Shown piece by piece: positions 8,768 to 28,483 of a stretch of DNA of 35,230 bases; the stretch's first letter is position 1, and each line of letters begins with the position of its first letter. The translations under genes were made by a program, and so were the position numbers. The DNA lies in NCBI GenBank assembly GCA_021792855.1, contig JAJYTW010000022.1:1-35230 (forward strand), written 5' to 3'. Below the pieces are notes generated by a model. It worked only from the letters and a program-made list of their open reading frames with translations. It was not told where the DNA came from and did not search any database. This DNA comes from Actinomycetes bacterium (GTDB lineage Bacteria; Actinomycetota; Actinomycetes; Streptosporangiales; Streptosporangiaceae).

Positions 8768-9601
8768 CTACTTGTCTGCTGGCTTCGTCTTCGGCTTCGC
8801 GGCGCCGGCCGGAGCGCGCCGGCTGCTCGTCGAGGTGCGCTTGGCCGGGCTGGTCTTGGCCGAGTCGGCCTTGGCCGGGCTTGCCTTAGCGGTCCTGGGC
8901 TTAGCCGTCCTGGCCGCGGGCGGGGTCGCCGGCGCCCCGGCCTCCGCTGCCGACTCCTGCTCGCGCTCCTGGGCTGCCGTCGCGGCAGCCGCTGCGGCGG
9001 CCTCGGGCTCATCGGTCCGGCCGGCGGACGCCGGCTTCGCCGTCGGAACGGCCTCGGCCTCGGGCTCGGCTGGCGCCGGCTCGGCCGTGGTGCGACTGGC
9101 GTCCGGCGCGAGCACGGCACTGGCCTGCTGCATCAGCGGCTCGGCGACGGCCCGCACCTGGTCCGTGACCAGCCGCTGGACGAACCGAACCTGACCGGCG
9201 AACTCGTGCGCACCGGAGCGGATCTGGTCCGGGGTCGGCAGCTTGGCCATCCGCTCGCGGATCTGGTCCGACGCGGGCAGCTTGGCGACCCGCTCGCGGA
9301 TCTGGTCCGACGCGGGCAGCTTGGCGACCCGCTCGCGGATCTGGTCCGGGGTCGGCAGCTTGGCCTTCTCGCGGATCTGGTCCGGGGTCGGCAGCTTGGC
9401 GACGAGGCCCGGTGCCTTCTCCCGGAGCTCCGCGGGCGTCGGCAGGCCAAGTGGCGGCCTCGGCAGGCTCGGTAGCTGCGGCCGGATGAGCTGTGCGGTG
9501 GCGGTCACCGTGCGGACGGTGCTCGTCACCCTCTGGCGTCCCTTGCGGGCGGCCGCCAGGACCTGGTCCTGCAGCTCGTGTCCGATGGTGCGGCTGTCCA
9601 T
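8768..9601 (-). CDS. HbhA-like (heparin-binding hemagglutinin-like) Ala/Pro/Lys-rich protein with internal KLPxxDQIRER repeats
   Basis: ATG at 9601 with GGGAGG SD; basic C-terminus ...AKPRTAKASPAKADSAKTSPAKRTSTSSRRAPAGAAKPKTKPADK; adjacent XRE gene, comparable to the Rv0474/hbhA neighbourhood in M. tuberculosis. Confidence 0.7.
   Translation of the reverse strand: MDSRTIGHELQDQVLAAARKGRQRVTSTVRTVTATAQLIRPQLPSLPRPPLGLPTPAELREKAPGLVAKLPTPDQIREKAKLPTPDQIRERVAKLPASDQIRERVAKLPASDQIRERMAKLPTPDQIRSGAHEFAGQVRFVQRLVTDQVRAVAEPLMQQASAVLAPDASRTTAEPAPAEPEAEAVPTAKPASAGRTDEPEAAAAAAATAAQEREQESAAEAGAPATPPAARTAKPRTAKASPAKADSAKTSPAKRTSTSSRRAPAGAAKPKTKPADK
9205..9405. repeat. 39-nt coding repeat array (5 copies, one shortened) encoding KLP(T/A)(P/S)DQIRE(R/K)xA
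   Basis: Repeated (g)atctggtccg(g/a)(g/c)g(t/c)(c/g)ggcagcttggc(g/c)... blocks; translation KLPTPDQIREKA-KLPTPDQIRERVA-KLPASDQIRERVA-KLPASDQIRERMA-KLPTPDQIRSGA. Confidence 0.92.
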
Positions 9602-9741: not shown

Positions 9742-10410
9742 TCAGCCACCGCCGCGAGCCTTGACCAGGCCGGTCTCGTAGGCGAAGACGACCGCCTGGA
9801 CGCGGTCCCGCAGCCCGAGCTTGGCGAGCACCCGGCCGACGTGGGTCTTGACGGTCGCCTCGGACACGAAGAGCCTGTCGGCGATCTCGGCGTTGGACAG
9901 CCCCTGGGCGATGAGCACGAGGACCTCCCGTTCCCGCCCGGTCAGCCCGGCGAGTTCGGCCGACGACCGGTCATCGGTGGTCGGAAACATCGGCGCGAAC
10001 CGGTCGATCAGCCGCCTGGTCACCGACGGGGCGACCACGGCGTCCCCGGAGTGCACCGATCGGATCCCGAACAGTAGTTCCTCCGGCGGAACATCCTTGA
10101 GCAGGAACCCGCTGGCCCCCGCCTTGAGCGCGGCATAGGCGTACTCATCGAGGTCGAAGGTGGTGAGCATGAGCACCCGCGGCCGGTCGCCGGCCTGGCA
10201 GATCCTCCTGGTGGTCTCGATCCCGTCCAGCTTCGGCATCCGCACGTCCATGACGACGACGTCGGCCCGCACCGAGCGCAGGCTCTCCAGCGCCGCGATG
10301 CCGTCCGCGGCCTCGCCGACCACCCGCATGTCCGGCTGGGCGTCCAGCACCATCTTGAACCCGGCCCGGACCAGTTCCTGGTCATCGACCAGCAGGATCT
10401 GGATGCTCAT
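9742..10410 (-). CDS. NarL/LuxR-family response regulator
   Basis: [37 protein letters not shown]...[14 protein letters not shown]...[48 protein letters not shown]. Confidence 0.97.
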
Positions 10411-11639
10411 GCCACCCCGGCCCGCTCGGCCGAGCGGATCGGCAGGCTGGCAACGACTCCGAACCCGCCGTCCGGCCGCGGTCCCGCGATGACCGAGCCG
10501 CCGTACATCGCGGCCCGCTCCCGCATCCCGGTCAGCCCGTGACCGGCACCGTCGGAGCCAGCCGCCGCGCCGATCCCGTTGTCGGCGATCTCCAGGTCCA
10601 GCCGGTCCCCGGCATACCGCAGCCGGACTGTGGCCTCTGCTCCGGGCCCGGCGTGCTTGCGGGTGTTGGTCAGTGACTCCTGAATGATCCGGTAGGCGGC
10701 CAGCGCCGTCCCGCCGGGCAGTTCCCGCGGCTCGCCGTCGACCGTGCAGGTGACCGGCAGCCCGGCCGCCCTCGCCTGGTCGAGCAGATCGTCAAGCTGG
10801 CTAAGGCCGGGAACCGGGGCGAGTGCCGCCGCGCCGTCGGCGCCGGTCCTGCGCAGCACCCCGAGCAGCGCCCGCATCTCGGTCAGTGCCTGCCGCCCGG
10901 CGGCGGCGATGGCCATCAGGGCCTCCCGCGCCCGGGCCGGATCGGCGTCGATCGCGTAGGCGGCGCCGTCCGCCTGGACCACCATCACGCTGACGTTGTG
11001 GGCGACCACGTCGTGCAGTTCGCGCGCGATCCTGGCGCGTTCCGCCGCCGCGGCGATCTGCGCCTGGGCGTCGCGATCGCGCTCCAGCCTGGCTGCCCGC
11101 TCCTCCAGGTTCGCGTAGTAGGCCCGGCGGTAGCGCATCGAGTCGCCCAGCACCCAGGCGATCAGGCACGGACCGGCGAACATGATCGAGCCGACCAGCA
11201 GCCAGGTCAGCGCGCTGAGCGCGGTCGGCTTCCAGGACAGCATCGCCGCCCCGGAGCCCAGCAGGCAGATCCCCAGGCCGGTGACCGATGCCCGCCGGTT
11301 GGTGTAGGCGGCGAGGGTGTACAGCAGCACGACGATGGCCAGGTCGCTGGCGATCGGGCGGACCCCGACCACGGCTACCCGCGTCCCGACGACAACCGGG
11401 TGCACGCCAATGGCCCCGACTACGACCTGAACGGCGCCGATCGCGACGGTCACGGCGAAGGCGGCAACCGGATGCCCCCGGCGGAAGATCACCGGAAGGC
11501 ACATGCCGAGCGCTACCGGAATGAGCCAGTACCGGCCGGTCCCGATGCCGTTGCCGATGCCCGCCAGGGCGAGCGCGAGTGCGAGCACGCCGTCAACCAG
11601 GCGCGGATGACGTCGCAACCATGCGTAGAAGGCGGCCAC
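10407..11639 (-). CDS. DesK/NarX-type (HisKA_3) sensor histidine kinase
   Basis: Multiple TM segments; ERARIARELHDVVAHNVSVMVVQADGA, YRIIQESLTNTRKHAGPGAEATV, GAGHGLTGMRERAAMYGG; 4-nt overlap with the response regulator. Confidence 0.97.
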   Translation of the reverse strand: MAAFYAWLRRHPRLVDGVLALALALAGIGNGIGTGRYWLIPVALGMCLPVIFRRGHPVAAFAVTVAIGAVQVVVGAIGVHPVVVGTRVAVVGVRPIASDLAIVVLLYTLAAYTNRRASVTGLGICLLGSGAAMLSWKPTALSALTWLLVGSIMFAGPCLIAWVLGDSMRYRRAYYANLEERAARLERDRDAQAQIAAAAERARIARELHDVVAHNVSVMVVQADGAAYAIDADPARAREALMAIAAAGRQALTEMRALLGVLRRTGADGAAALAPVPGLSQLDDLLDQARAAGLPVTCTVDGEPRELPGGTALAAYRIIQESLTNTRKHAGPGAEATVRLRYAGDRLDLEIADNGIGAAAGSDGAGHGLTGMRERAAMYGGSVIAGPRPDGGFGVVASLPIRSAERAGVA

Positions 11640-12680: not shown

Positions 12681-13886
12681 TCAGGCCGCGCGGGGCGGTT
12701 CGCTGGGAAGCGCCGCCAGGTCGCGGTAGCCGGCCAGGGCCTCCTCGGCGATTCGCTGCCAGGGATACCTGGACCTGGCCCGGTCGGCGGCCGCGATACC
12801 GAACGCGGTGAGCTTCATCGGCCAGGCCAGCAGGTCGCGCATCCTGGGGATGAGCTGCCCGGGGCGCCCGGCCGGAACTAGCACACCGCTGGTGCCGTCC
12901 ACCACGGCGTCCGCTACGCCGCCCGCCGCGACCGCGGCGACCGGAGTGCCGCAGGCCATGGCGCGCAGCGCGGACAGCCCGAGCGGATCGAGCCGGGGCT
13001 GGCTCACGACCAGGTCCGCCGAGCGCAGCAGGTCCGGCAGACCCTGCTGGCCATCTTCGCTGGTGACCTTGACCCGGCCGGTGAGGTTCAGCGGGCCGGC
13101 GATCCCGCGGACGCTGGCCGGCACCGAGGTCCCCGCCCTGGACCGGCGGCGCGGCCCGGTAGCGAGCACCAGTTCGGTCCCGGGCACCTCGGCCAGCAGC
13201 CTGACCAGCGCCGCGGAGACCGCATCCGGCTCGGTCATCCCGACCTGCACCAGGCGCAGTCGGTCGGGCCGCCGGTCGGGGCGGCCCCGCGGGGTGAATC
13301 GTCCGGTGTCCACGCCGCACGGCACCACCCGCACCGATGACGGCGGGACGCCGACCCGGGCAAGCTCCTCGGCCTCGTCGGAACTGGCGGCCAGCACTCC
13401 GGCCACATTCCTGGCGACCAGTGCCTCCATCCGGGCCCTGGCGGCCAGATCCGGGGCGGCGGAAGTCGTCCTGCACTCCGCGGCGGCGAGCGACCCGAAC
13501 GTCTGGATCACCGGCACCTGCTGGTCCCTGGTCGCGATCAGCGCCGCGAGGCCGGCCGTCCAGGAACAGGCGTGCACGATATCCGGCGGGCACCTGCGCC
13601 ACTGACTGGCGAGCTGCCCGGCGAACTCGGCAACCTGGGCAGGCTCGTCGGCCGGAGCGAGCGGCCTGGGCGGCCCCGCGGTGAGATGCCGCACCGTGAG
13701 GCCGGGTGCCAGCGAGCGCTGGTTGGCCAGTCGGGGCGCGTCCTTGCGCGCGTAGATGGTGACCTGGTGGCCAAGCTCGGCCAGCGCGCGGCCGAGACCG
13801 TGCGCGTAGTCGCTGAGGCCGGCGGCCTGCGGGGTCGCGGGGGAGGCGGTGGTCGCGGCCTGGGGCACGACGAGGGCGATGTTCAT
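12681..13886 (-). CDS. GT4-family glycosyltransferase
   Basis: MNIALVVPQAATTASPATPQAAGLSDYAHGLGRALAELGHQVTIYARKD...PPDIVHACSWTAGLAAL...RLDPLGLSALRAMACGTPVAAVAAGGVADAVVDGTSGVLVPAG; SD AAGGAG. Confidence 0.95.
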   Translation of the reverse strand: MNIALVVPQAATTASPATPQAAGLSDYAHGLGRALAELGHQVTIYARKDAPRLANQRSLAPGLTVRHLTAGPPRPLAPADEPAQVAEFAGQLASQWRRCPPDIVHACSWTAGLAALIATRDQQVPVIQTFGSLAAAECRTTSAAPDLAARARMEALVARNVAGVLAASSDEAEELARVGVPPSSVRVVPCGVDTGRFTPRGRPDRRPDRLRLVQVGMTEPDAVSAALVRLLAEVPGTELVLATGPRRRSRAGTSVPASVRGIAGPLNLTGRVKVTSEDGQQGLPDLLRSADLVVSQPRLDPLGLSALRAMACGTPVAAVAAGGVADAVVDGTSGVLVPAGRPGQLIPRMRDLLAWPMKLTAFGIAAADRARSRYPWQRIAEEALAGYRDLAALPSEPPRAA

Positions 13887-14337: not shown

Positions 14338-15396
14338 TCAGCGCGACCTACCTGACCAGTACCCGGCGACCGGACTGATCCCCGGCGCCAGGTCCGCGGC
14401 AATCCCGGCATCGCGCCGCATGTGCAGGCGGAACGTGGTGCCCCGCGGACCGGACCGCACCTCGGCCAGGTCGCAGTACTGGTTGACCAGCCAGAGTCCC
14501 TGCCCGCCCGGCTGGGCCGGGTCGGGCAGCAGGTGGCCGGCCAGCGGATCGGTGATCTGGCCGTCGTCGTCGATCTGGCAGATCAGTTCGCCCGGGGTGA
14601 GCCACAGCCGGATGGTTCCGCCTCCCGCGGTGTGCGTGAGCGTGTTGGCCATCAGTTCGCCGACCGCGAGCACTAGGTCGCTGACCCGGGCCGGGGACAG
14701 GCCGGCGGCCGCGGCCCGGCGCGCGACCTGGTCGCGGGCGGCCCGCAAATCGGTGCCGTAGCCGAGCAGATAGCTGCCCGGCGGCGGCGGCTCCAGCGGC
14801 CGGTCGCACTCGGGCGGCGTCACGGCCGGACCCTGGTACGCCATGCTCGGCACCACCCGGCGTCCGGTGGCGAGCACCGGGTGGGTCCGCCCGGCTGCGG
14901 TCAGCGCCTGCCCGGGTAGCGCGCCGGCGTCGTAGGCGCACAGCAGAGCCAGGCCCGAGCCGGCCAGCGCGCGGTTGGCCAGCGCCTCGTGCCTGAGCAC
15001 CTCGCGGATCTCGGCGTCGGTGCGGCCGGCCCAGATCGGCTCGGTAACGAACCGGACCGGCCGGGTCCGCTGGGCGGCGAGCGACTGCAGCGCCGGGATG
15101 ATCCTGGCCGGATTCCGGCCGAGGTCGGCCGGATCGGCGAACAGCACCGACCGCGGGTGGCTGCCGAGCAGATCGCGCAGCGCCGCGGCGCGGCCGGCCG
15201 GCAGCGCGATCAGCACGTCCTGCCCGGACGTGATGCCGTCCAGCACGAAGTCGGCGAGGCCGGCTAGCAGGTCGGGGCCGTAGGCGAGCAGGGCCAGGTG
15301 CCGCAGCGCACCCGCGGCCGGCGCGGCGGCGCTGCCTCCTCGTGCGTCTCCCGCCTGGCGGCCGTGCGCTGCGCGGGGACGTCCCTCCGATCGCAC
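14338..15396 (-). CDS. MEDS sensory domain + HATPase_c, RsbA-type anti-sigma regulatory kinase (start uncertain)
   Basis: ALLAYGPDLLAGLADFVLDGITSGQDVLIALPAGRAAALRDLL (MEDS/DcmR-like) and LVLAVGELMANTLTHTAGGGTIRLWLTPGELICQIDDDG...GGQGLWLVNQYCDLAEVRSGPRGTTFRLHM (HATPase N/G1/G2). ORF extends to ATG 15564; GTG 15396 chosen as a plausible start. Confidence 0.88.
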   Translation of the reverse strand: MRSEGRPRAAHGRQAGDARGGSAAAPAAGALRHLALLAYGPDLLAGLADFVLDGITSGQDVLIALPAGRAAALRDLLGSHPRSVLFADPADLGRNPARIIPALQSLAAQRTRPVRFVTEPIWAGRTDAEIREVLRHEALANRALAGSGLALLCAYDAGALPGQALTAAGRTHPVLATGRRVVPSMAYQGPAVTPPECDRPLEPPPPGSYLLGYGTDLRAARDQVARRAAAAGLSPARVSDLVLAVGELMANTLTHTAGGGTIRLWLTPGELICQIDDDGQITDPLAGHLLPDPAQPGGQGLWLVNQYCDLAEVRSGPRGTTFRLHMRRDAGIAADLAPGISPVAGYWSGRSR

Positions 15397-15671
15397 CGGC
15401 CAACGCTGCCCAGCCTGCGCCCGGTTATGCGCGCCGGGCCCCGGCCGGGGCGGGGTGGTTGCTGGTAGCTGGCTCGCGTCGTCCCGCCGGGGCGCTCCCG
15501 CCGGGTGTCGCCGCGGCCTGGATCGGCTGGCATCTCGCGCTGCGCCGCCAGCCGCGCATAGCATTGTCGCGAGGGCCGGTCACGCCAGCCTGGGCGGCGG
15601 ACCGGGACCGCTCGCCGGGCTTCGCCGGCCGGCCTGCCCGGAGTCGGCCGGGACCGCGGAAGGGAAGCGGC

Positions 15672-16034
15672 TTGCAGCAGCTCGCGGTGTCCGCAGCGGA
15701 CCGGGATGGCGTCTGCGTCGTGACCGTGGCCGGCGAACTCGACGTGCTGACCAGCCGCGACCTGGACGCGGAGCTGACCAGGGCCCGCCGCGCGTACGAC
15801 CGGGTTGTCCTCGACCTGTCGGGTGTGGGCTTCATGGACACCAGTTCGCTTGCCGTGATCGTCGGCCACTGGCGCAACCTGGAGGCGGCCGGCGGGTGGC
15901 TGGCGCTGGCGGGCGCGCGCTATCAGTACCTCAAGTCGCTGTGGATCACCGGCCTGGCCGACCGCATTCCGCTGTTCGAGTCCGCGGAGCATGCCGTCGC
16001 CGCGGCTCCGGCGGCCCGCGATCGGGACACCTGA
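15672..16034 (+). CDS. STAS-domain anti-sigma factor antagonist
   Basis: Within ORF 15342..16034; TTG at 15672 with GGAAGGG upstream. VCVVTVAGELDVLTSRDLDAELTRARRAYDRVVLDLSGVGFMDTSSLAVIVGHWRNLEAAGG has the D-T-S-S phosphosite region. Confidence 0.9.
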   Translation: MQQLAVSAADRDGVCVVTVAGELDVLTSRDLDAELTRARRAYDRVVLDLSGVGFMDTSSLAVIVGHWRNLEAAGGWLALAGARYQYLKSLWITGLADRIPLFESAEHAVAAAPAARDRDT

Positions 16035-16069
16035 GCCCGGGCGGCGATTCACCCCGCCCACGGCGGCCC

Positions 16070-16100
16070 GCCCACGGCGGCCCGGCGGCCGCGGGTGGGC
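16070..16100. terminator. GC-rich hairpin between convergent genes (candidate terminator)
   Basis: GCCCAC-GGCGGCC...GGCCGCGG-GTGGGC fold-back between the STAS stop (16034) and the PP2C stop (16121). Confidence 0.5.
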
Positions 16101-16120
16101 AGGCAGGCCAGGCGCCCCGG

Positions 16121-18499
16121 TCAGCGCAGCGTTACGGCGAGCAGGCAGGCGTCGTCGCCGGTGTCCGAGGTCGCCCCGGCCATCACCAGGTCGGTGTACT
16201 CGTCCAGGTCCCGCACCGGCCGGCTGGCGTTGTCGAGCAGGGTCCGGAGCGAGTCGTCGATGGACTGATCCCGGCGCTCGATCAGACCGTCGGTGAATAG
16301 CAGCAGCGTGTCGTCCAGGCGCAGGGTGGTGGTCGCCTGCTGGTACACGGCGTCGGCCGCGGCCCCGAGCAGCAGGCCGCTTGGCTGGCGCAGGGTCCGC
16401 GCCTGGCCGGCCCGGACGAGGACCGGCGGGATATGGCCGGCCCGGGCCCACCGCAGGGTGCGGGTCGCCGGATCGTAGATGCCGCAGATCGCGGTCCCGA
16501 GTATTCCGTCGGTGAGGTAGTACGCGGCGTTGTTCAGCCAGCCGAGCAGTTCCGCGGGCTCGGCCCCGGTGATCGCCAGGCCGCGCAGGCAGTTGCGGAG
16601 CGCGACCATCCCGGTGACGGCGTCGATGCCGTGGCCGGCCACGTCCCCGACCACGAGCATGACCTCCTTGCTGGGCAGCAGAACCGCGTCGTACCAGTCG
16701 CCGCTGACCAGATGCACCTGCCCGGCCGGCCGGTAGCGCGCGGCGACGTCCAGGCCGGCGGCGGCGACCAGGTGGGAAGACTGCGGCGTGATGGCCTCCT
16801 GGAGCCGGGTGGCCAGGCGATGCTCCTCCAGCGCGCGGTCCTGGGTGTCGGAAAGCTGCTCTCTGGTCGCGGCCAGTGCGACCTGCATGTGGTACTGGGA
16901 CGACACGTCCTGGTAGGCGCCCCGGACCGCGACCAGCGTGCCCGCCTGGTCGGTGACCGGCTCGGCGAACGCGCGGATCTGCCGGATGCTGCCGTCGTCC
17001 TCGCGGATGATCCGGAACACGGCGGCGGTCGCCGACGCCTCCCGCAGCAGCGTGGAGCGGAACGAATCCACCACCGCGGCGTCGTCAGCGGGTACGTGCG
17101 CGGCGATCTCGCCGAGCCGGATCGGCTTGCCTGGTTCGCGGCCGAACACCGCGAAGGTCGGCTCGGTCCAGTGCACCGCGCCGGTGATCAGGTTCTCCTC
17201 CCAGCTGCCGATCCGCCCCAGGCGCTGGGCATGCTGCAGGAGCGTGGTGAGCCGCTCGGTTTCGGCCGCGTGCCGCCAGGTCATGACCACTCCGTCGAAC
17301 AGCCGGGCGATCCGGACGGTGGCCGGGGCGCCTGTCATGGTTCCGACCGGCAGCGCGCCGAAATCCCCGGAAACCTGGCGCGGCTCCCCGCTGGCCAGCA
17401 CGTCCAGCGCCAGGTCATACAGACTGCCGGGGAGCGCCGCGGCCGGGAACGCCTCAAGCAGCGTCTGATCGGCCAGCGCCCCGGCCCGCCGTCCGGCCGG
17501 ATCGCGGAATCCCGGGCTGACGTTCGTGATCAGGAAGTCGGTCACCGCGCCGTCATCGCCGCGGAGCGCCCGGGCGAAGATCACCGAGTCGTGCAGGCCC
17601 TCAAGCAGTCCCAGGATCGGCTGGGCCGGGTCAGCGGCGGCCTGCTCGCCGCCCGCCGGCATCGCCCCGAGGGCCTGGCCGCACAGGTCGGCCAGCGCGG
17701 TGATCTGACGCTGCGTCGGCAGGTCGAATTCGGCCAGCGGCCCGGGCCAGCACACTTCCAGCGAGCCGAGCACGCTGCCGGCCGTCCGGATCGGGACAAC
17801 GGCTCGCGCGCCGCCGGTCCATCTGCCGATGAGCGGGACCCGGCCGGCGCCGGCCGCGCCGCGCGGCAGCCAGACCCCGTCCGGATGGCGGGCGGCGCGC
17901 TCGGCCAGCGACCCGATCCCGGGCGGGATCCGCCGCCAGCGACTGGCCTCCCTGGCGCCGAAACCTGCCTGCCCGGCCAGGTCGAGCGCGCCGTCGGGGG
18001 CGATCAGCCAGATCGCCACGGCAACCGCGCCCAGGCTGGTCAGGGCCTCCTCAAGGATGGCGGCGGCGATGCCGGGGGCGTCGGCGGCAAGCTCGATCGC
18101 GGCGGCAGCCAGCGGCGCGCGGTTCGGTGTCCCTTCGCCGCCGGCCGCGGCCGGTAGCGGCTCGGCGGCACCAGCGGCCCTGGCGTCGGCGTCGGCGGGC
18201 GCCTGCTCGGGGTCGCCGCCGTTGCCGGAACCCGGGCGGGCGGCCGGCGGCTGCCAGCCGCCATCGCCGACAATCTGCACCGCGAGGTCGATGACGTCGG
18301 CGCCGGCCTCGGCCGCGATCGTCGCTAGCTGGCTCCTGGCCTCGGCGGCCGAGCAGCCAAGCCGCTCCATCAGGATGCCCCTGGCCAGATCCGTGACCGT
18401 CCGTGCGGCGGCCTCCGCGCGCAGCCGCTCAAGCTCGCGCCGCTGACGCGCGACGAGCCTGGTGAGCTGCTCGGAATGGTCGCTGCTGAGAATCGCCAC
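16121..18499 (-). CDS. ANTAR-GAF-PAS-PAS-SpoIIE/PP2C protein phosphatase
   Basis: GTG at 18499 preceded by GAGCAGGAG. ANTAR-like ARTVTDLARGILMERLGCSAAEARSQLATIAAEAG; GAF region; PAS LGRIGSWEENLITGAVHWTEPTFAVFG; SpoIIE motifs SGDWYDAV, VVGDVAGHGIDAV, LLLFTDGLIERR, TGDDACLLAV. Confidence 0.93.
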   Translation of the reverse strand: MAILSSDHSEQLTRLVARQRRELERLRAEAAARTVTDLARGILMERLGCSAAEARSQLATIAAEAGADVIDLAVQIVGDGGWQPPAARPGSGNGGDPEQAPADADARAAGAAEPLPAAAGGEGTPNRAPLAAAAIELAADAPGIAAAILEEALTSLGAVAVAIWLIAPDGALDLAGQAGFGAREASRWRRIPPGIGSLAERAARHPDGVWLPRGAAGAGRVPLIGRWTGGARAVVPIRTAGSVLGSLEVCWPGPLAEFDLPTQRQITALADLCGQALGAMPAGGEQAAADPAQPILGLLEGLHDSVIFARALRGDDGAVTDFLITNVSPGFRDPAGRRAGALADQTLLEAFPAAALPGSLYDLALDVLASGEPRQVSGDFGALPVGTMTGAPATVRIARLFDGVVMTWRHAAETERLTTLLQHAQRLGRIGSWEENLITGAVHWTEPTFAVFGREPGKPIRLGEIAAHVPADDAAVVDSFRSTLLREASATAAVFRIIREDDGSIRQIRAFAEPVTDQAGTLVAVRGAYQDVSSQYHMQVALAATREQLSDTQDRALEEHRLATRLQEAITPQSSHLVAAAGLDVAARYRPAGQVHLVSGDWYDAVLLPSKEVMLVVGDVAGHGIDAVTGMVALRNCLRGLAITGAEPAELLGWLNNAAYYLTDGILGTAICGIYDPATRTLRWARAGHIPPVLVRAGQARTLRQPSGLLLGAAADAVYQQATTTLRLDDTLLLFTDGLIERRDQSIDDSLRTLLDNASRPVRDLDEYTDLVMAGATSDTGDDACLLAVTLR

Positions 18500-18585
18500 G
18501 CTCCTGCTCTGCGTTGCCCGCCGGTCGGTGGGCAGTCCGCCAGGATATCCGGCGGGTCGAATGCCCAAAAAATCCGGCACAGCGG

Positions 18586-18610
18586 GCGTTGCTTCTCGGA
18601 AAGTGGGTAG
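18586..18610 (+). promoter_or_regulatory. Candidate SigB/F-type promoter upstream of the multi-HAMP kinase
   Basis: GCGT-N15-GGGTAG fits the loose GNNT-N14-16-GGGTA(C/T) SigB-type pattern. Confidence 0.35.
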
Positions 18611-18633
18611 TCGGGCGGCCGGATGCAATCGGT

Positions 18634-18696
18634 CTTCGCCGACGAACCCCTTGCCAAGCGTAGTGTGCAAAGGCAAGCCGTCGTCAATGTTCGAAG
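18634..18696 (+). promoter_or_regulatory. Candidate structured 5' leader (nested inverted repeats)
   Basis: CTTCG(18634-38)/CGAAG(18692-96); CGACG(18640-44)/CGTCG(18679-83); CTTGCC(18650-55)/GGCAAG(18672-77). Confidence 0.5.
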
Positions 18697-18753
18697 TCCC
18701 GGCGGCTGGCCCGGCACTGCTCCGGGTCGCCTCCGCGGGCGGGAGGAGTGCGC

Positions 18754-22290
<3,537 letters not shown>

Positions 22291-22410
22291 CCCCGCCGCC
22301 GCCGGCCGGGCGGCCCGGGATCGACTGCGGGCGGCCGGGACGGCCGCGTGGCACGATGGAGGCAAGGGCCCGCCGGCGCCGCGGCGGCGACCGCCGGGCT
22401 GGAGGAGTCC

Positions 22411-23127
22411 ATGACGCAGCTGGATCTGGCCGATCTGCTGGATGTCGCGGCGTCCTCGCGGGCCAGGTCGCTGCACCAGGTGGCGGCCATGGCCGCCCGC
22501 GTGGCGCCCGGCTGCGCGGCGGCGAGCGCGGTCTGGTGGCTGGCCGGCGAGCCGGTGCTGACCGCCTCGTCCCATCCGGACCTGGCCTGGCTGATTCAGG
22601 CCGAGATCACGGCGGGCCGGGGGCCGATGCTCGAAGCGCTGGCCGGTGCCGGGACGGTGAGCTGCCCGGACCTGCTGGCCGAGGACCGCTGGCCGGAATA
22701 CGCGGACGCGGCACTGGCAGCGGGCGCCAGGTGCACGCTGACGCTGTCCAGGCCGGCCGAGGACGGGCAGGTCTGCCTGACGCTGGCCGGTGCCCGGCCG
22801 GGCGCGCTGGATCCGGACCAGTGCGAGCGGGCCGAGACCCTGGCGGCGCTGGGCGCCGCGGTGCTCGGCGCGGTCGACCGCTACGACGACGCCCGGCGCA
22901 CGGTCAGTCAGCTCAGGGACGCCGCGGCGGCGCGATCGGTGGTCGATCAGGCCAAGGGCGTCCTGATGCGGGCGCTGGGCTGCGGCCCGGACGAGGCGCT
23001 GCGCAGGATCCGGCAGGTGTCCCAGGATCAGAACCTGCGGGCGACGGAGGTGGCACGGGACATCGTTATCGCGACCGCGGGCCGGCCGGCGGCGGGCGGC
23101 GCCCGGCCCCGGCCGGGCCGGCGGTAG
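22411..23127 (+). CDS. GAF-ANTAR domain transcription antitermination regulator
   Basis: ATG at 22411 with GGAGGAG SD; C-terminal AAARSVVDQAKGVLMRALGCGPDEALRRIRQVSQDQNLRATEVARDIV is a canonical ANTAR. Confidence 0.93.
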   Translation: MTQLDLADLLDVAASSRARSLHQVAAMAARVAPGCAAASAVWWLAGEPVLTASSHPDLAWLIQAEITAGRGPMLEALAGAGTVSCPDLLAEDRWPEYADAALAAGARCTLTLSRPAEDGQVCLTLAGARPGALDPDQCERAETLAALGAAVLGAVDRYDDARRTVSQLRDAAAARSVVDQAKGVLMRALGCGPDEALRRIRQVSQDQNLRATEVARDIVIATAGRPAAGGARPRPGRR

Positions 23128-23131
23128 GCCG

Positions 23132-25072
23132 ATGGCACTCGGGGACCGTGGCCGGGCCGGCTCGCCGCCGGAGATGGATCTGCCGGCCGAGACCGCCGGG
23201 ATCGCCGCCAGGGCGGAGGCGATCCGGCAGGCGGCCGCGCTGCCCGGGGCCGAGCCGCGACTGCTGCTCGATGCCGCGCTTACCGAGGTTGAGGCCGCGC
23301 TGGCGGCGCTGCGGGCCGCCGCTGGACGGGACCGGCCTGGGTCCGGCCCGGGCCCGGACCCGCGTCCGGCCGCCCGGGCGCTGCGGGCCGTGTTCCAGCA
23401 GGCCCCGATTCCGCTGCTGGTGCTCGGCCGCGATGGTGTCATCCGGCGGGCGAACCTGGCCGCCGCCGAGCTGATCGGCGCCGGGCCCGGCTACCCGACT
23501 GGCAAGCACGTCACCGCCCTGATCGATCCGCCGGACCGGCCGGCGGTCCAGTCCGGCCTGGCCGCCGCCTGCCGCTCGGACGCGGGCTCGGACCTGTGCT
23601 GCGGTCTGCTTGCCGGGCACGGGATCGTCCGGGCCGACCTGGCGTTCCAGCTGATCCAGGTCCGCGGCGAGGACGATCAGATCCTGGCCGCGGTGACGGG
23701 GATCGCGGACCGGTCGCCGGCCGGCGGGACTGCCCGGTCGAGCGATGCGCGGGCCAGCGCTGCCCGGTCCGGCCCGGCGGGGGACGCCGGGGGCGGGATG
23801 GCAGTTCAGGCGCGGCGCCTGGACCTGATGCTCGCGGTCGGCCGGTTGCTCCTGGACAACCTGGAGTCCACCGCCGCCGTCCTGGTGCAGCGACTGGCCC
23901 GGTTGCTCGCCGACCACCTGGCGGCCTGGGTCCTGGTTGACCTGCCCGGCCCGGACGGGCTGCGGCGCGCCTGCGTGGCCGGCCCCGATAGCGAGGACTC
24001 GGTCGCGCTCGGGGAGCGTGCGATGGAGGTCGGCCCGGTGCCTGGCTCGGTGCCGGCCCAGGTGGCCGAGTCTGGCGACCCGGTGCTGCTGGCCGACGCC
24101 GAGGACGTCGGCCTGCTCGGCCTGACCGGCGACGAGACGCCGTTGCTGCTGGCTCTGCGCGGCACGTGCGTGCTGTCGGCGCCGGTGCCGGCGGATGACG
24201 GCGCGGGTCTCGGGGCGCTCACCCTGGTCCGGGCGGCCGGAGCGGGCCGGCTGGGCCTCACCGACCTGGCCGTTACCGAGGAGATCGCCCGGCAGCTTGG
24301 CCAGGCGCTGGTCCTGCAGCGAGCGGCGCGGCGCCGCCACGCGGTGGTCACCGAGCTTCAGGACAGCGTTCTGCCCCGCCAGCTGCCGGCGGTCCCCGGG
24401 GTCCAGTCCGCGGCCGCGCACCTGGCGCCGACCCGCGGGATCGCGGTGAGCGGCGACTTCTACGACGTTTATCCGATGCGGGACGGCTGGGGGCTGGCGA
24501 TCGGGGACGTCTGCGGCCGAGACCGCGGCACGGCCGCGGTGACCGCTGCCGCAAGGCACACGATCCGGGTGCTCGCGCACCGGTCCGCCGACCCGGCATC
24601 GGTGCTGCGGGGCGCCAACGACCTGCTGCTGGCACAGGCGTTCGACGCCACGTTCGTGACCGCCACGACCGCGCGGCTGACCTGGCGGGACGAGCGGCTG
24701 CGGGTGGTGCTGGCCAGCGCCGGCCATCCCGGGCCGGTCCTGGTCGGCTCGGACGGCCGGGTCCGGCCGGTGGTCGGCGGCGGCGTGCCGCTCGGCGTCT
24801 TCGCCCCGTCGGATCTGGAGATCGTCCGGCACCGGGTCGAGCTCGCGCCTGGCGACCTGCTGTTCTTCTGCACCGACGGAGTCACCGACGCGCGCGGCGC
24901 CGGCCCGGCTAGCTTCGGTGACCAGCTTGCGGACCGGCTCGCGGCCCTGGCCGGGCTGCCGCCCGGCGAACTGGTCGCCGGGCTCCGGCAGAGCCTGCTC
25001 GAGTTCTGCGGGGACGAACTGATCGACAGCGCGAGCATGCTGGTCATCCAGGCGGCCGAGCCGCCAGCCTGA
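23132..25072 (+). CDS. PAS-GAF-SpoIIE/PP2C serine phosphatase
   Basis: PAS RAVFQQAPIPLLVLGRDGVIRRANLAAAELIG; GAF; PP2C SGDFYDVYPMRDGWGLAIGDVCGRDRGTAAVTAAARHTIR, ASAGHPGPVLVG, LLFFCTDGVTDARG. Confidence 0.92.
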   Translation: MALGDRGRAGSPPEMDLPAETAGIAARAEAIRQAAALPGAEPRLLLDAALTEVEAALAALRAAAGRDRPGSGPGPDPRPAARALRAVFQQAPIPLLVLGRDGVIRRANLAAAELIGAGPGYPTGKHVTALIDPPDRPAVQSGLAAACRSDAGSDLCCGLLAGHGIVRADLAFQLIQVRGEDDQILAAVTGIADRSPAGGTARSSDARASAARSGPAGDAGGGMAVQARRLDLMLAVGRLLLDNLESTAAVLVQRLARLLADHLAAWVLVDLPGPDGLRRACVAGPDSEDSVALGERAMEVGPVPGSVPAQVAESGDPVLLADAEDVGLLGLTGDETPLLLALRGTCVLSAPVPADDGAGLGALTLVRAAGAGRLGLTDLAVTEEIARQLGQALVLQRAARRRHAVVTELQDSVLPRQLPAVPGVQSAAAHLAPTRGIAVSGDFYDVYPMRDGWGLAIGDVCGRDRGTAAVTAAARHTIRVLAHRSADPASVLRGANDLLLAQAFDATFVTATTARLTWRDERLRVVLASAGHPGPVLVGSDGRVRPVVGGGVPLGVFAPSDLEIVRHRVELAPGDLLFFCTDGVTDARGAGPASFGDQLADRLAALAGLPPGELVAGLRQSLLEFCGDELIDSASMLVIQAAEPPA

Positions 25073-25096
25073 AGCTGGCGCGCTGGAGTGGACGGC

Positions 25097-25954
25097 TCAG
25101 CCGGCCTCGGCCACGCTGCCTGGCTCGGCGATGCGGTCGCGCAGGTAGCCGAGCGCGTGCCCGAGCAGCCGTGACACATGCATCTGGGAGATGCCGAGCT
25201 GCGCGCCGATCTGGGATTGCGTCATGTTGCCGTAGAAGCGCATCAGCACCAGCCGCTGCTCGCGTTCCGGCAGTTCGCCGAGGTGCTCCCAGACCGCGGA
25301 CATCGCTACCGACGTCTCGACTTGCTCGTCCGAATCGCCGATGACCTCGGCGAGCACGCTGGCGTCGGCGCCGTCGGACAGTGGCGCGCTGAGCGACGCG
25401 GCCTGGAACGCCTGGTCCGCGCGCTGCGCGTCCAGCAGTTCGGCGAGGCTCACGCCGAGATGGTCGGCGAGGTCGGCCGGGGTGACCGTCCGCTGTAGCT
25501 GCTGGGTCAGCTCGCCGTGTGACTTGCGGATCCGCAGCCGCAACTCCTGCGTGGCCCGGCGGACGTGGATCTGCCAGCGCCGGTCCCGGAAGTACCGCTT
25601 GATCTCGCCGCTGACGCACGGCTGCGCATACGCGGCCAGGCTCTCGCCGATCTCCGGATCGAAGTTGTTGATCGCCTTGAGCAGGCCGACGTAGCCGACC
25701 TGCATCAGCTCCTCCTGCGGTTCCGGGCTCTCCCGGTACCGCAGCGCGCAGGACCGCACCAGCGACGCGTATCGGTCGACCAGCACGGCACACGCCTCCT
25801 CGCGGACGGCGGTGCCGATCGGCTGGGACTGGACGAGCGCGACCAGATCGCGGTCCCCGGCCTCGGCGAGCGCGGGCTCGGGGGCGGTTTGGGTCATCAC
25901 GGGGGTCACTGCGGTGCCTGCCTTCGTCGTTTCGGGTGGTCTGCCCGGCGTCAT
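25097..25954 (-). CDS. RNA polymerase sigma factor, SigB/SigF/SigG subfamily
   Basis: LVDRYASLVRSCALRYRESPEPQEELMQVGYVGLLKAINNFDPEIGESLAAYAQPCVSGEIKRYFRDRRWQIHVRRATQELRLRI...LPEREQRLVLMRFYGNMTQSQIGAQLGISQMHVSRLLGHALGYLRDRI. Confidence 0.97.
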   Translation of the reverse strand: MTPGRPPETTKAGTAVTPVMTQTAPEPALAEAGDRDLVALVQSQPIGTAVREEACAVLVDRYASLVRSCALRYRESPEPQEELMQVGYVGLLKAINNFDPEIGESLAAYAQPCVSGEIKRYFRDRRWQIHVRRATQELRLRIRKSHGELTQQLQRTVTPADLADHLGVSLAELLDAQRADQAFQAASLSAPLSDGADASVLAEVIGDSDEQVETSVAMSAVWEHLGELPEREQRLVLMRFYGNMTQSQIGAQLGISQMHVSRLLGHALGYLRDRIAEPGSVAEAG

Positions 25955-25997
25955 CCGGTTTCAGCGTCCGGAACGCCCGGACCGGGCCCTGACTGAC

Positions 25998-26021
25998 ATG
26001 CCCGCTGACAGCGGCCTAAAC
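25998..26021 (-). promoter_or_regulatory. Candidate SigB/F-type autoregulatory promoter of the sigma factor gene
   Basis: Minus strand GTTT-N14-GGGCAT ending 43 nt upstream of the ATG at 25954; compare SigB/F consensus GTTT-N14-17-GGGTAT. Confidence 0.5.
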
Positions 26022-28177: not shown

Positions 28178-28483
28178 CTAACCGCCAAGCAGCTTCGCCT
28201 TGGCTGAGGCGAACTCCTGATCGGTTAGCACGCCCTGCTTGTGCAGGTCAGCGAGCTTGCTGAGCTGATCGGTGACCGACTGCCCGCCGGCCTCGGCCGG
28301 CTGAGAACCCGCCCGTTGCTGTTGCTGTTGTTGCTGTTGCTGTTCCAGGTCGCTGATCCGGGCGTCCTGGCCGGACTCCTGCTGGGCCTGCTCCGCGGAG
28401 CGCCGGGCGCTCCGCTTGCCGACGGCGTAGGCGCCGCCGCCCACCACGGCCGCTCGCAGCAGCGGCCTGCGTCTGACGAACAT
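28178..28483 (-). CDS. SHOCT-domain small protein with polyglutamine tract
   Basis: C-terminal DQLSKLADLHKQGVLTDQEFASAKAKLLGG is the SHOCT motif; N-terminal hydrophobic segment; 9 consecutive Gln; SD AGGAGG. Confidence 0.88.
   Translation of the reverse strand: MFVRRRPLLRAAVVGGGAYAVGKRSARRSAEQAQQESGQDARISDLEQQQQQQQQQRAGSQPAEAGGQSVTDQLSKLADLHKQGVLTDQEFASAKAKLLGG
28316..28342. repeat. Trinucleotide tract (ttg/ctg, CAA/CAG on minus) encoding Gln9
   Basis: ttgctgttgctgttgttgctgttgctg read directly from the sequence. Confidence 0.95.

What the first reader, a model, noticed from the sequence alone, without database searches (positions are those of the whole stretch)
14338..26021. Dense partner-switching and ANTAR signalling island around a SigB/F-type sigma factor
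Seven neighbouring genes encode every class of component expected for sigma partner switching: RsbA-type MEDS/HATPase kinase, STAS antagonist, two PP2C phosphatases and a SigB/F sigma factor. They are interleaved with a giant multi-HAMP hybrid kinase and two ANTAR-containing proteins (RNA-binding antiterminators by family). Domain content is read from the translations. That they form one circuit coupling kinase input, sigma release and RNA antitermination is inference from adjacency. This is my best candidate for an undescribed system.
Basis: partly seen in the sequence, partly recalled or inferred. Interest (0 to 1): 0.8.

Follow-up and report, generated by a model that had tools for sequence, protein, structure and literature searches.

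The report
Conserved osmostress-type sigma partner-switching island
A run of seven neighbouring genes in an uncultured actinobacterium most likely forms one stress-signalling unit that releases a backup sigma factor; it is an enlarged relative of the known Streptomyces osmotic-stress (osa/SigB) loci, with one unexplained addition, a GAF-ANTAR protein that is nearly always paired with one of its phosphatases.

Summary
Seven intact genes at 14338-25954 encode an RsbA-type MEDS-HATPase kinase, a STAS antagonist, two PP2C phosphatases (one with an N-terminal ANTAR), a poly-HAMP hybrid kinase, a GAF-ANTAR protein and a SigB/F-type sigma factor. Catalytic residues are in place. The cluster recurs in identical order in a congener (G002) and in pieces across relatives, whereas nine genes flanking it here almost never co-occur.

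It has two modules. Module B is the poly-HAMP kinase with its divergent ANTAR-PP2C. In Nocardiopsis terrae, module A genes lie beside an osaB-osaA-osaC-type cluster. The window's kinase groups with kinases encoded beside an ANTAR-PP2C, the layout inferred for Streptomyces SCO7327 (OsaD)-SCO7325 (RsbV).

So this is a new variant of the known osa/SigB partner-switching kind. RNA antitermination is not supported: the phosphatase's ANTAR has lost the known RNA-contact residues, the GAF-ANTAR keeps only some, and no hexaloop targets or SigB-type promoters are enriched upstream of the genes. What remains open is the near-constant GAF-ANTAR/PAS-PP2C pairing (32 of 36 loci).

The parts
12681..13886 (-).
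   Evidence: Pfam GT4; MshA model 149.5 bits vs cut-off 462.5; within 12 kb in 10 of 36 PAS_PP2C loci
14338..15396 (-). MEDS-HATPase, RsbA-type anti-sigma kinase (proposed anti-sigma factor for the 25097-25954 sigma)
   Evidence: RsbA_anti_sig 305 bits; N, G1, G2 boxes intact; model: HATPase = RsbW fold, MEDS = RecA/FlaH-like; MEDS-less members of the same subfamily sit beside the sigma gene in five relatives
15672..16034 (+). STAS anti-sigma-factor antagonist; phospho-acceptor is Thr in F-M-D-T-S
   Evidence: STAS 5.5e-17; ant_ant_sig 65.6 bits; site Thr or Ser in all 17 aligned sequences
16121..18499 (-). ANTAR-GAF-PAS-SpoIIE (PP2C) phosphatase
   Evidence: Pfam; PP2C metal Asp residues intact; ANTAR RNA contacts lost
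18754..22290 (+). Soluble poly-HAMP - GAF - HisKA - HATPase - REC hybrid kinase, OsaD-like
   Evidence: Pfam; 92-aa repeats at residues 29, 121, 213, 305, 397, 489 and a 276-bp DNA repeat; His and Asp intact; tree
22348..23127 (+). GAF-ANTAR protein, likely same operon as the kinase
   Evidence: ANTAR 3e-18, GAF_2 0.004, AlphaFold pLDDT 89 with a GAF-like N domain, long helix and ANTAR helices
23132..25072 (+). PAS-[cryptic GAF]-SpoIIE (PP2C) phosphatase, 4 bases after the GAF-ANTAR gene
   Evidence: Pfam; alignment of 13 orthologues with PP2C Asp residues invariant
25097..25954 (-). SigB/F-type sigma factor, convergent with the phosphatase
   Evidence: Sigma70 r2/r3/r4; SigBFG 229.3 bits vs 234.35; own clade apart from the genome's canonical SigF

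Best explanation
The island is a partner-switching sigma module with several sensory inputs. Under calm conditions the MEDS-HATPase protein binds the SigB/F-type sigma factor and keeps it off RNA polymerase, and phosphorylates the STAS protein on the Thr of its F-M-D-T-S loop. Stress activates one or both PP2C phosphatases (PAS/GAF input; ANTAR-GAF-PAS input). They dephosphorylate STAS, which captures the MEDS-HATPase and frees the sigma factor. The soluble poly-HAMP hybrid kinase, an OsaD-type protein, is the likely osmotic or envelope-stress sensor that feeds the same switch, probably through the divergently encoded ANTAR-PP2C. Shown: gene content, intact active sites, co-conservation. Inferred: every interaction, the direction of signalling, and the nature of the stress.
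For: Intact catalytic motifs in kinase, STAS, both PP2C, HisKA and REC. Identical gene order in a congener and partial order in other genera; flanking control genes co-occur 0-1 times of 36. The kinase-sigma pairing is supported by five relatives where a MEDS-less HATPase of the same subfamily (138-145 bits with a model built from the window HATPase, against 20-45 for most other RsbW-like ATPases) lies beside the sister-clade sigma gene. The genome's other SigB/F sigma (C59) overlaps its own gene that looks like a short anti-sigma ATPase, which leaves this kinase for this sigma. HATPase model matches RsbW, SpoIIAB and the SigF anti-sigma complex. Poly-HAMP kinase and ANTAR-PP2C are neighbours in 11 of 12 loci. 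Nocardiopsis terrae joins osaB-osaA-osaC homologues to GT4/RsbA-kinase/STAS/ANTAR/PAS-GAF. Literature: SCO7325 is an RsbV acting on SigB, OsaC modulates SigB (PMC8346170); OsaA has over ten HAMPs (PMC9739842); SCO7327 is named OsaD (PMC9739823).
Against: Several relatives lack one or more members near by, so the unit is not obligate; fragmented assemblies explain only part of this. No SigB-type promoter (GTTT-N-GGGTA) is enriched upstream of the genes, so autoregulation is unsupported. The sigma/kinase/STAS interactions are untested. The genome has other phosphatases and kinases that could cross-talk, as in Streptomyces.
Confidence: 0.62

Rival explanations
1. Two independent units that happen to be neighbours: a sigma/STAS/RsbA-kinase/PAS-PP2C switch (module A) and a poly-HAMP kinase/ANTAR-PP2C pair (module B) acting on other partners, such as a BldG-like hub elsewhere.
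For: Each module occurs without the other in many loci: module A without B in L021-L023 and L035-L039, module B without A in L055, L056, L059, L061, L062, though several of these contigs are short.
Against: The modules meet in the window, G002, G033, G017, G018, Trebonia kvetii and, with osaBAC as the kinase unit, Nocardiopsis; OsaC is reported to act on SigB in Streptomyces.
Confidence: 0.27
2. One reading: a circuit that couples kinase input, sigma release and RNA antitermination by two ANTAR proteins.
For: GAF-ANTAR lies near PAS-PP2C in 32 of 36 loci, and its nearest solved structure by sequence is 6hmj, titled an RNA-binding LOV receptor.
Against: ANTAR-PP2C lost the EutV RNA contacts (E160, Y164, M172, N173, R175, R177 replaced by A, R, A, E, G, D); GAF-ANTAR lacks K143, K147, E160, Y164 and M172. 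Hexaloop hairpins upstream of island genes are at chance level.
Confidence: 0.08
3. Chance clustering of abundant signalling genes.
For: Partner-switching families are numerous in some actinobacteria (45 RsbW, 44 PP2C in S. coelicolor, PMC8346170).
Against: This genome has few (10 SpoIIE, 7 ANTAR, 4 MEDS, 2 SigB/F) and the order is conserved between genera.
Confidence: 0.03

Closest known systems
Streptomyces coelicolor osaC-osaA-osaB (SCO5747-SCO5749)
   Same: Very long soluble poly-HAMP hybrid kinase with REC, divergent from a multidomain PP2C; linked to SigB.
   Different: No OsaB-type response regulator here; the phosphatase carries ANTAR instead of the OsaC layout; the window kinase is in another clade than Streptomyces OsaA; sigma, STAS and RsbA kinase are in the same island here.
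S. coelicolor SCO7325 (RsbV) - SCO7327 (OsaD) - SCO7328 (RsbW homologue) locus
   Same: Poly-HAMP hybrid kinase with STAS and RsbW-type genes; a comparable locus in another actinobacterial family (L060) reads HATPases, sigma, kinase, ANTAR-PAS-PP2C, STAS, and its kinase groups with the window's.
   Different: S. coelicolor sequences could not be fetched; the correspondence rests on gene order and numbers. GAF-ANTAR, PAS-PP2C, GT4 and the MEDS-HATPase are extra here.
Bacillus subtilis SigB RsbV-RsbW-RsbU/RsbP switch
   Same: Same component classes; HATPase model matches RsbW.
   Different: MEDS domain on the kinase, Thr instead of Ser in STAS, ANTAR proteins, hybrid kinase.
RsbA family anti-sigma regulators (NCBIfam NF041045)
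   Same: Window kinase is a full member, 305 bits vs 210.
   Different: Nothing essential; the MEDS domain is absent from the deeper relatives' kinases.

Membership tests
SigB/RsbW partner switching | RsbW-type HATPase with intact N, G1, G2 boxes | tested here: met
SigB/RsbW partner switching | STAS antagonist with phosphorylatable Ser/Thr after Asp | tested here: met
   D-T-S
SigB/RsbW partner switching | PP2C phosphatase with metal Asp residues | tested here: met
SigB/RsbW partner switching | SigB/F/G-family sigma factor | tested here: met
   229 bits, best-scoring subfamily but 5 bits under the curated cut-off; clade
SigB/RsbW partner switching | Kinase binds sigma and phosphorylates STAS | not testable with these tools
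   needs biochemistry
osa locus (OsaA/OsaD kinase) | Soluble kinase with many HAMPs, HisKA, HATPase, REC | tested here: met
osa locus (OsaA proper) | Groups with Streptomyces OsaA and has osaB next to it | tested here: not met
   separate clade, no OsaB-like gene in the island
osa locus (OsaD-like) | Groups with kinases encoded beside ANTAR-PP2C | tested here: met
osa locus (OsaD-like) | Orthology to S. coelicolor SCO7327 itself | not tested
ANTAR RNA antiterminator (EutV/NasR type) | RNA-contact residues of EutV | tested here: not met
   GAF-ANTAR keeps R142 and a basic R177 but not K143, K147, E160, Y164, M172; ANTAR-PP2C keeps fewer
ANTAR RNA antiterminator (EutV/NasR type) | A1/G4 hexaloop targets near regulated genes | tested here: not met
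   no enrichment upstream of island genes; rest of genome not scanned
RsbA anti-sigma family NF041045 | Score over curated cut-off | tested here: met

The most novel reading that the evidence does not exclude
The GAF-ANTAR protein is a true working part of the switch: an actinobacterial ANTAR clade with its own conserved motif (R-x-x-x-DQAKG ... SQ) acts together with the adjoining PAS-PP2C, either binding a different RNA to set the level of switch components or controlling the phosphatase by protein contact. That would be a partner-switching system with an ANTAR regulator as a standing member.
Probability: 0.25. Interest if true: 0.65.

Novelty: new variant of a known kind. Interest (0 to 1): 0.42.

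Why it matters
It links the poorly understood poly-HAMP osmosensing kinases of actinobacteria to a specific sigma factor, kinase and antagonist in one conserved locus, which makes the unknown signalling path of OsaA/OsaD-type kinases testable gene by gene in a culturable relative (Trebonia kvetii, Nocardiopsis terrae). It also points to a nearly constant GAF-ANTAR/PP2C gene pair; a search of the open paper library found no paper joining ANTAR domains to partner switching in actinobacteria.

Tried and rejected
Kinase/phosphatase fusions: the 2071- and 2087-aa open frames around ANTAR-PP2C in G020 and G032 looked like fusions with the poly-HAMP kinase; the frames differ, so they are separate genes. 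SigB-type promoters upstream of island genes: none above chance. ANTAR hexaloops upstream: none above chance. Rfam: no hit. CorA, LigD, sulfatase and the two-component pair at 9742-11639 as island members: rejected, they do not co-occur. GT4 as MshA: rejected, far under the cut-off. Wider class and order searches failed because the genome server did not answer.

Full report
What is there. The window is a whole 35-kb contig of a 4.7-Mb, 93% complete assembly in 380 contigs; the closest named relatives are Streptosporangiaceae MAGs and Trebonia. Codon-position statistics and a codon-usage gene caller support seven coding genes in 14338-25954. Orientation: MEDS-HATPase (-), STAS (+), ANTAR-GAF-PAS-PP2C (-), then poly-HAMP kinase, GAF-ANTAR and PAS-PP2C as a likely + strand operon (gaps of 57 and 4 bases), and the sigma gene (-) converging on it.

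Active sites. STAS has F-M-D-T-S at the phosphorylation loop; the kinase keeps its N, G1 and G2 boxes; both phosphatases keep the metal-binding Asp residues; the hybrid kinase keeps the HisKA His and the REC Asp. In PAS-PP2C the last Asp-Asp of relatives reads Asp-Ser in the window; the first, invariant Asp is kept. The hybrid kinase is made of 92-residue repeats at exact spacing (29, 121, 213, 305, 397, 489), seen in DNA as a 276-bp tandem repeat, and shows no clear membrane helix.

More than chance. The assembly holds 10 SpoIIE, 7 ANTAR, 4 MEDS and 2 SigB/F-type sigma genes (in one search the other sigma hits score far lower). In the congener G002 the order sigma, PAS-PP2C, GAF-ANTAR, poly-HAMP kinase, ANTAR-PP2C, STAS, MEDS-HATPase, GT4 is identical. 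Over 36 loci with a PAS-PP2C orthologue, genes within 12 kb are: GAF-ANTAR 32, sigma 14, STAS 14, GT4 10, MEDS-HATPase 7, poly-HAMP kinase 6, ANTAR-PP2C 4; nine flanking genes of the window score 0, except LigD 1. Contigs are short in several loci, so the counts are lower limits. ANTAR-PP2C has the poly-HAMP kinase beside it in 11 of 12 loci; the exception is cut by a contig end. The locus set was chosen from PAS-PP2C and ANTAR-PP2C hits, so these are conditional frequencies, not a census.

Which kinase serves the sigma. In five deeper relatives (L035-L039) the sigma gene is followed by a short HATPase without MEDS. It scores 138-145 bits with a model built from the window's HATPase and its relatives (these five may be among the sequences the model was built from), while most other RsbW-like ATPases in the loci score 20-45; the one tested with NCBIfam matches RsbA_anti_sig over the HATPase part at 104.7 bits. 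The sigma factors of those loci and of the island form one side of a 98/94 split; the genome's canonical SigF (contig C59) lies on the other. Root position is by midpoint only. The C59 sigma overlaps a 119-residue gene that by eye resembles a short anti-sigma ATPase (not confirmed by HMM). This makes the MEDS-HATPase the best candidate anti-sigma factor for the island sigma. AlphaFold gives pLDDT 83; the HATPase part resembles RsbW (TM 0.87 on the target) and the anti-sigma of the SigF complex, the MEDS part RecA/FlaH-like folds.

Relation to osa. In some 30-40 Streptomycetaceae loci a poly-HAMP kinase of about 1800 residues is followed by a protein of about 220 residues and faces a divergent PP2C protein; size and layout fit published OsaA (1829 aa, over ten HAMPs), OsaB and OsaC. 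In Nocardiopsis terrae (L140) the homologues of these three stand directly beside PAS-GAF, GAF-ANTAR, STAS, MEDS-HATPase and GT4. The window's kinase is not in the Streptomyces OsaA clade but in a clade (100/99) with L060-L062, which carry ANTAR-PP2C next to the kinase; L060 also has a sigma gene, two HATPases and STAS. In S. coelicolor, SCO7327 is called OsaD (PMC9739823), SCO7325 is an RsbV acting on SigB and SCO7328 an RsbW homologue (PMC8346170).

ANTAR. EutV binds its RNA through R142, K143, K147, E160, Y164, M172, N173, R175 and R177 (PMC8934654). Mapping by the profile alignment and the family alignments: GAF-ANTAR keeps R142 and a basic residue at R177, but has A/S, Q, A or P, L/F and Q at K143, K147, E160, Y164 and M172. 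The ANTAR of ANTAR-PP2C has A, R, A, E, G, D at E160, Y164, M172, N173, R175, R177 in the window. The solved protein 6hmj, the nearest structure by sequence, shares the DQAKG motif and is described as an RNA-binding LOV receptor, so RNA binding by GAF-ANTAR is possible, with other specificity. Hairpins with A1/G4 hexaloops upstream of island genes are at chance level, and no SigB-type promoter is enriched.

Verdict. It is a new combination within the known osa/SigB partner-switching kind. The RNA-antitermination part is unsupported. The remaining open point is why a GAF-ANTAR gene accompanies PAS-PP2C so faithfully, even in Actinomadura where the rest of the module was not detected near by.

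Noticed in passing
12681-13886, and L023, L031, L035-L039, L051, L058, L069, L140: A GT4 glycosyltransferase (MshA-like fold, not MshA) is a conserved neighbour of the sigma/PP2C module; possible output such as an osmolyte or envelope sugar.
   Followed up: partly
L066-L078 (Actinomadura and others): GAF-ANTAR and PAS-PP2C occur as an adjacent gene pair with no recognised orthologue of the sigma, STAS or kinase near by.
   Followed up: partly
L142:7677-8974 (G000 contig C59): The genome's canonical SigF-type sigma overlaps a 119-aa gene that resembles a short anti-sigma ATPase by eye.
   Followed up: partly
window 9218-9400: 39-bp tandem repeat, 4.8 copies, inside the 8768-9601 gene.
   Followed up: no
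window 28315-28344: Short repeat coding a poly-Gln run in a small protein (28178-28483).
   Followed up: no
window 18915-20295: 276-bp repeat, five copies, the DNA trace of the poly-HAMP array; array length differs between relatives.
   Followed up: partly
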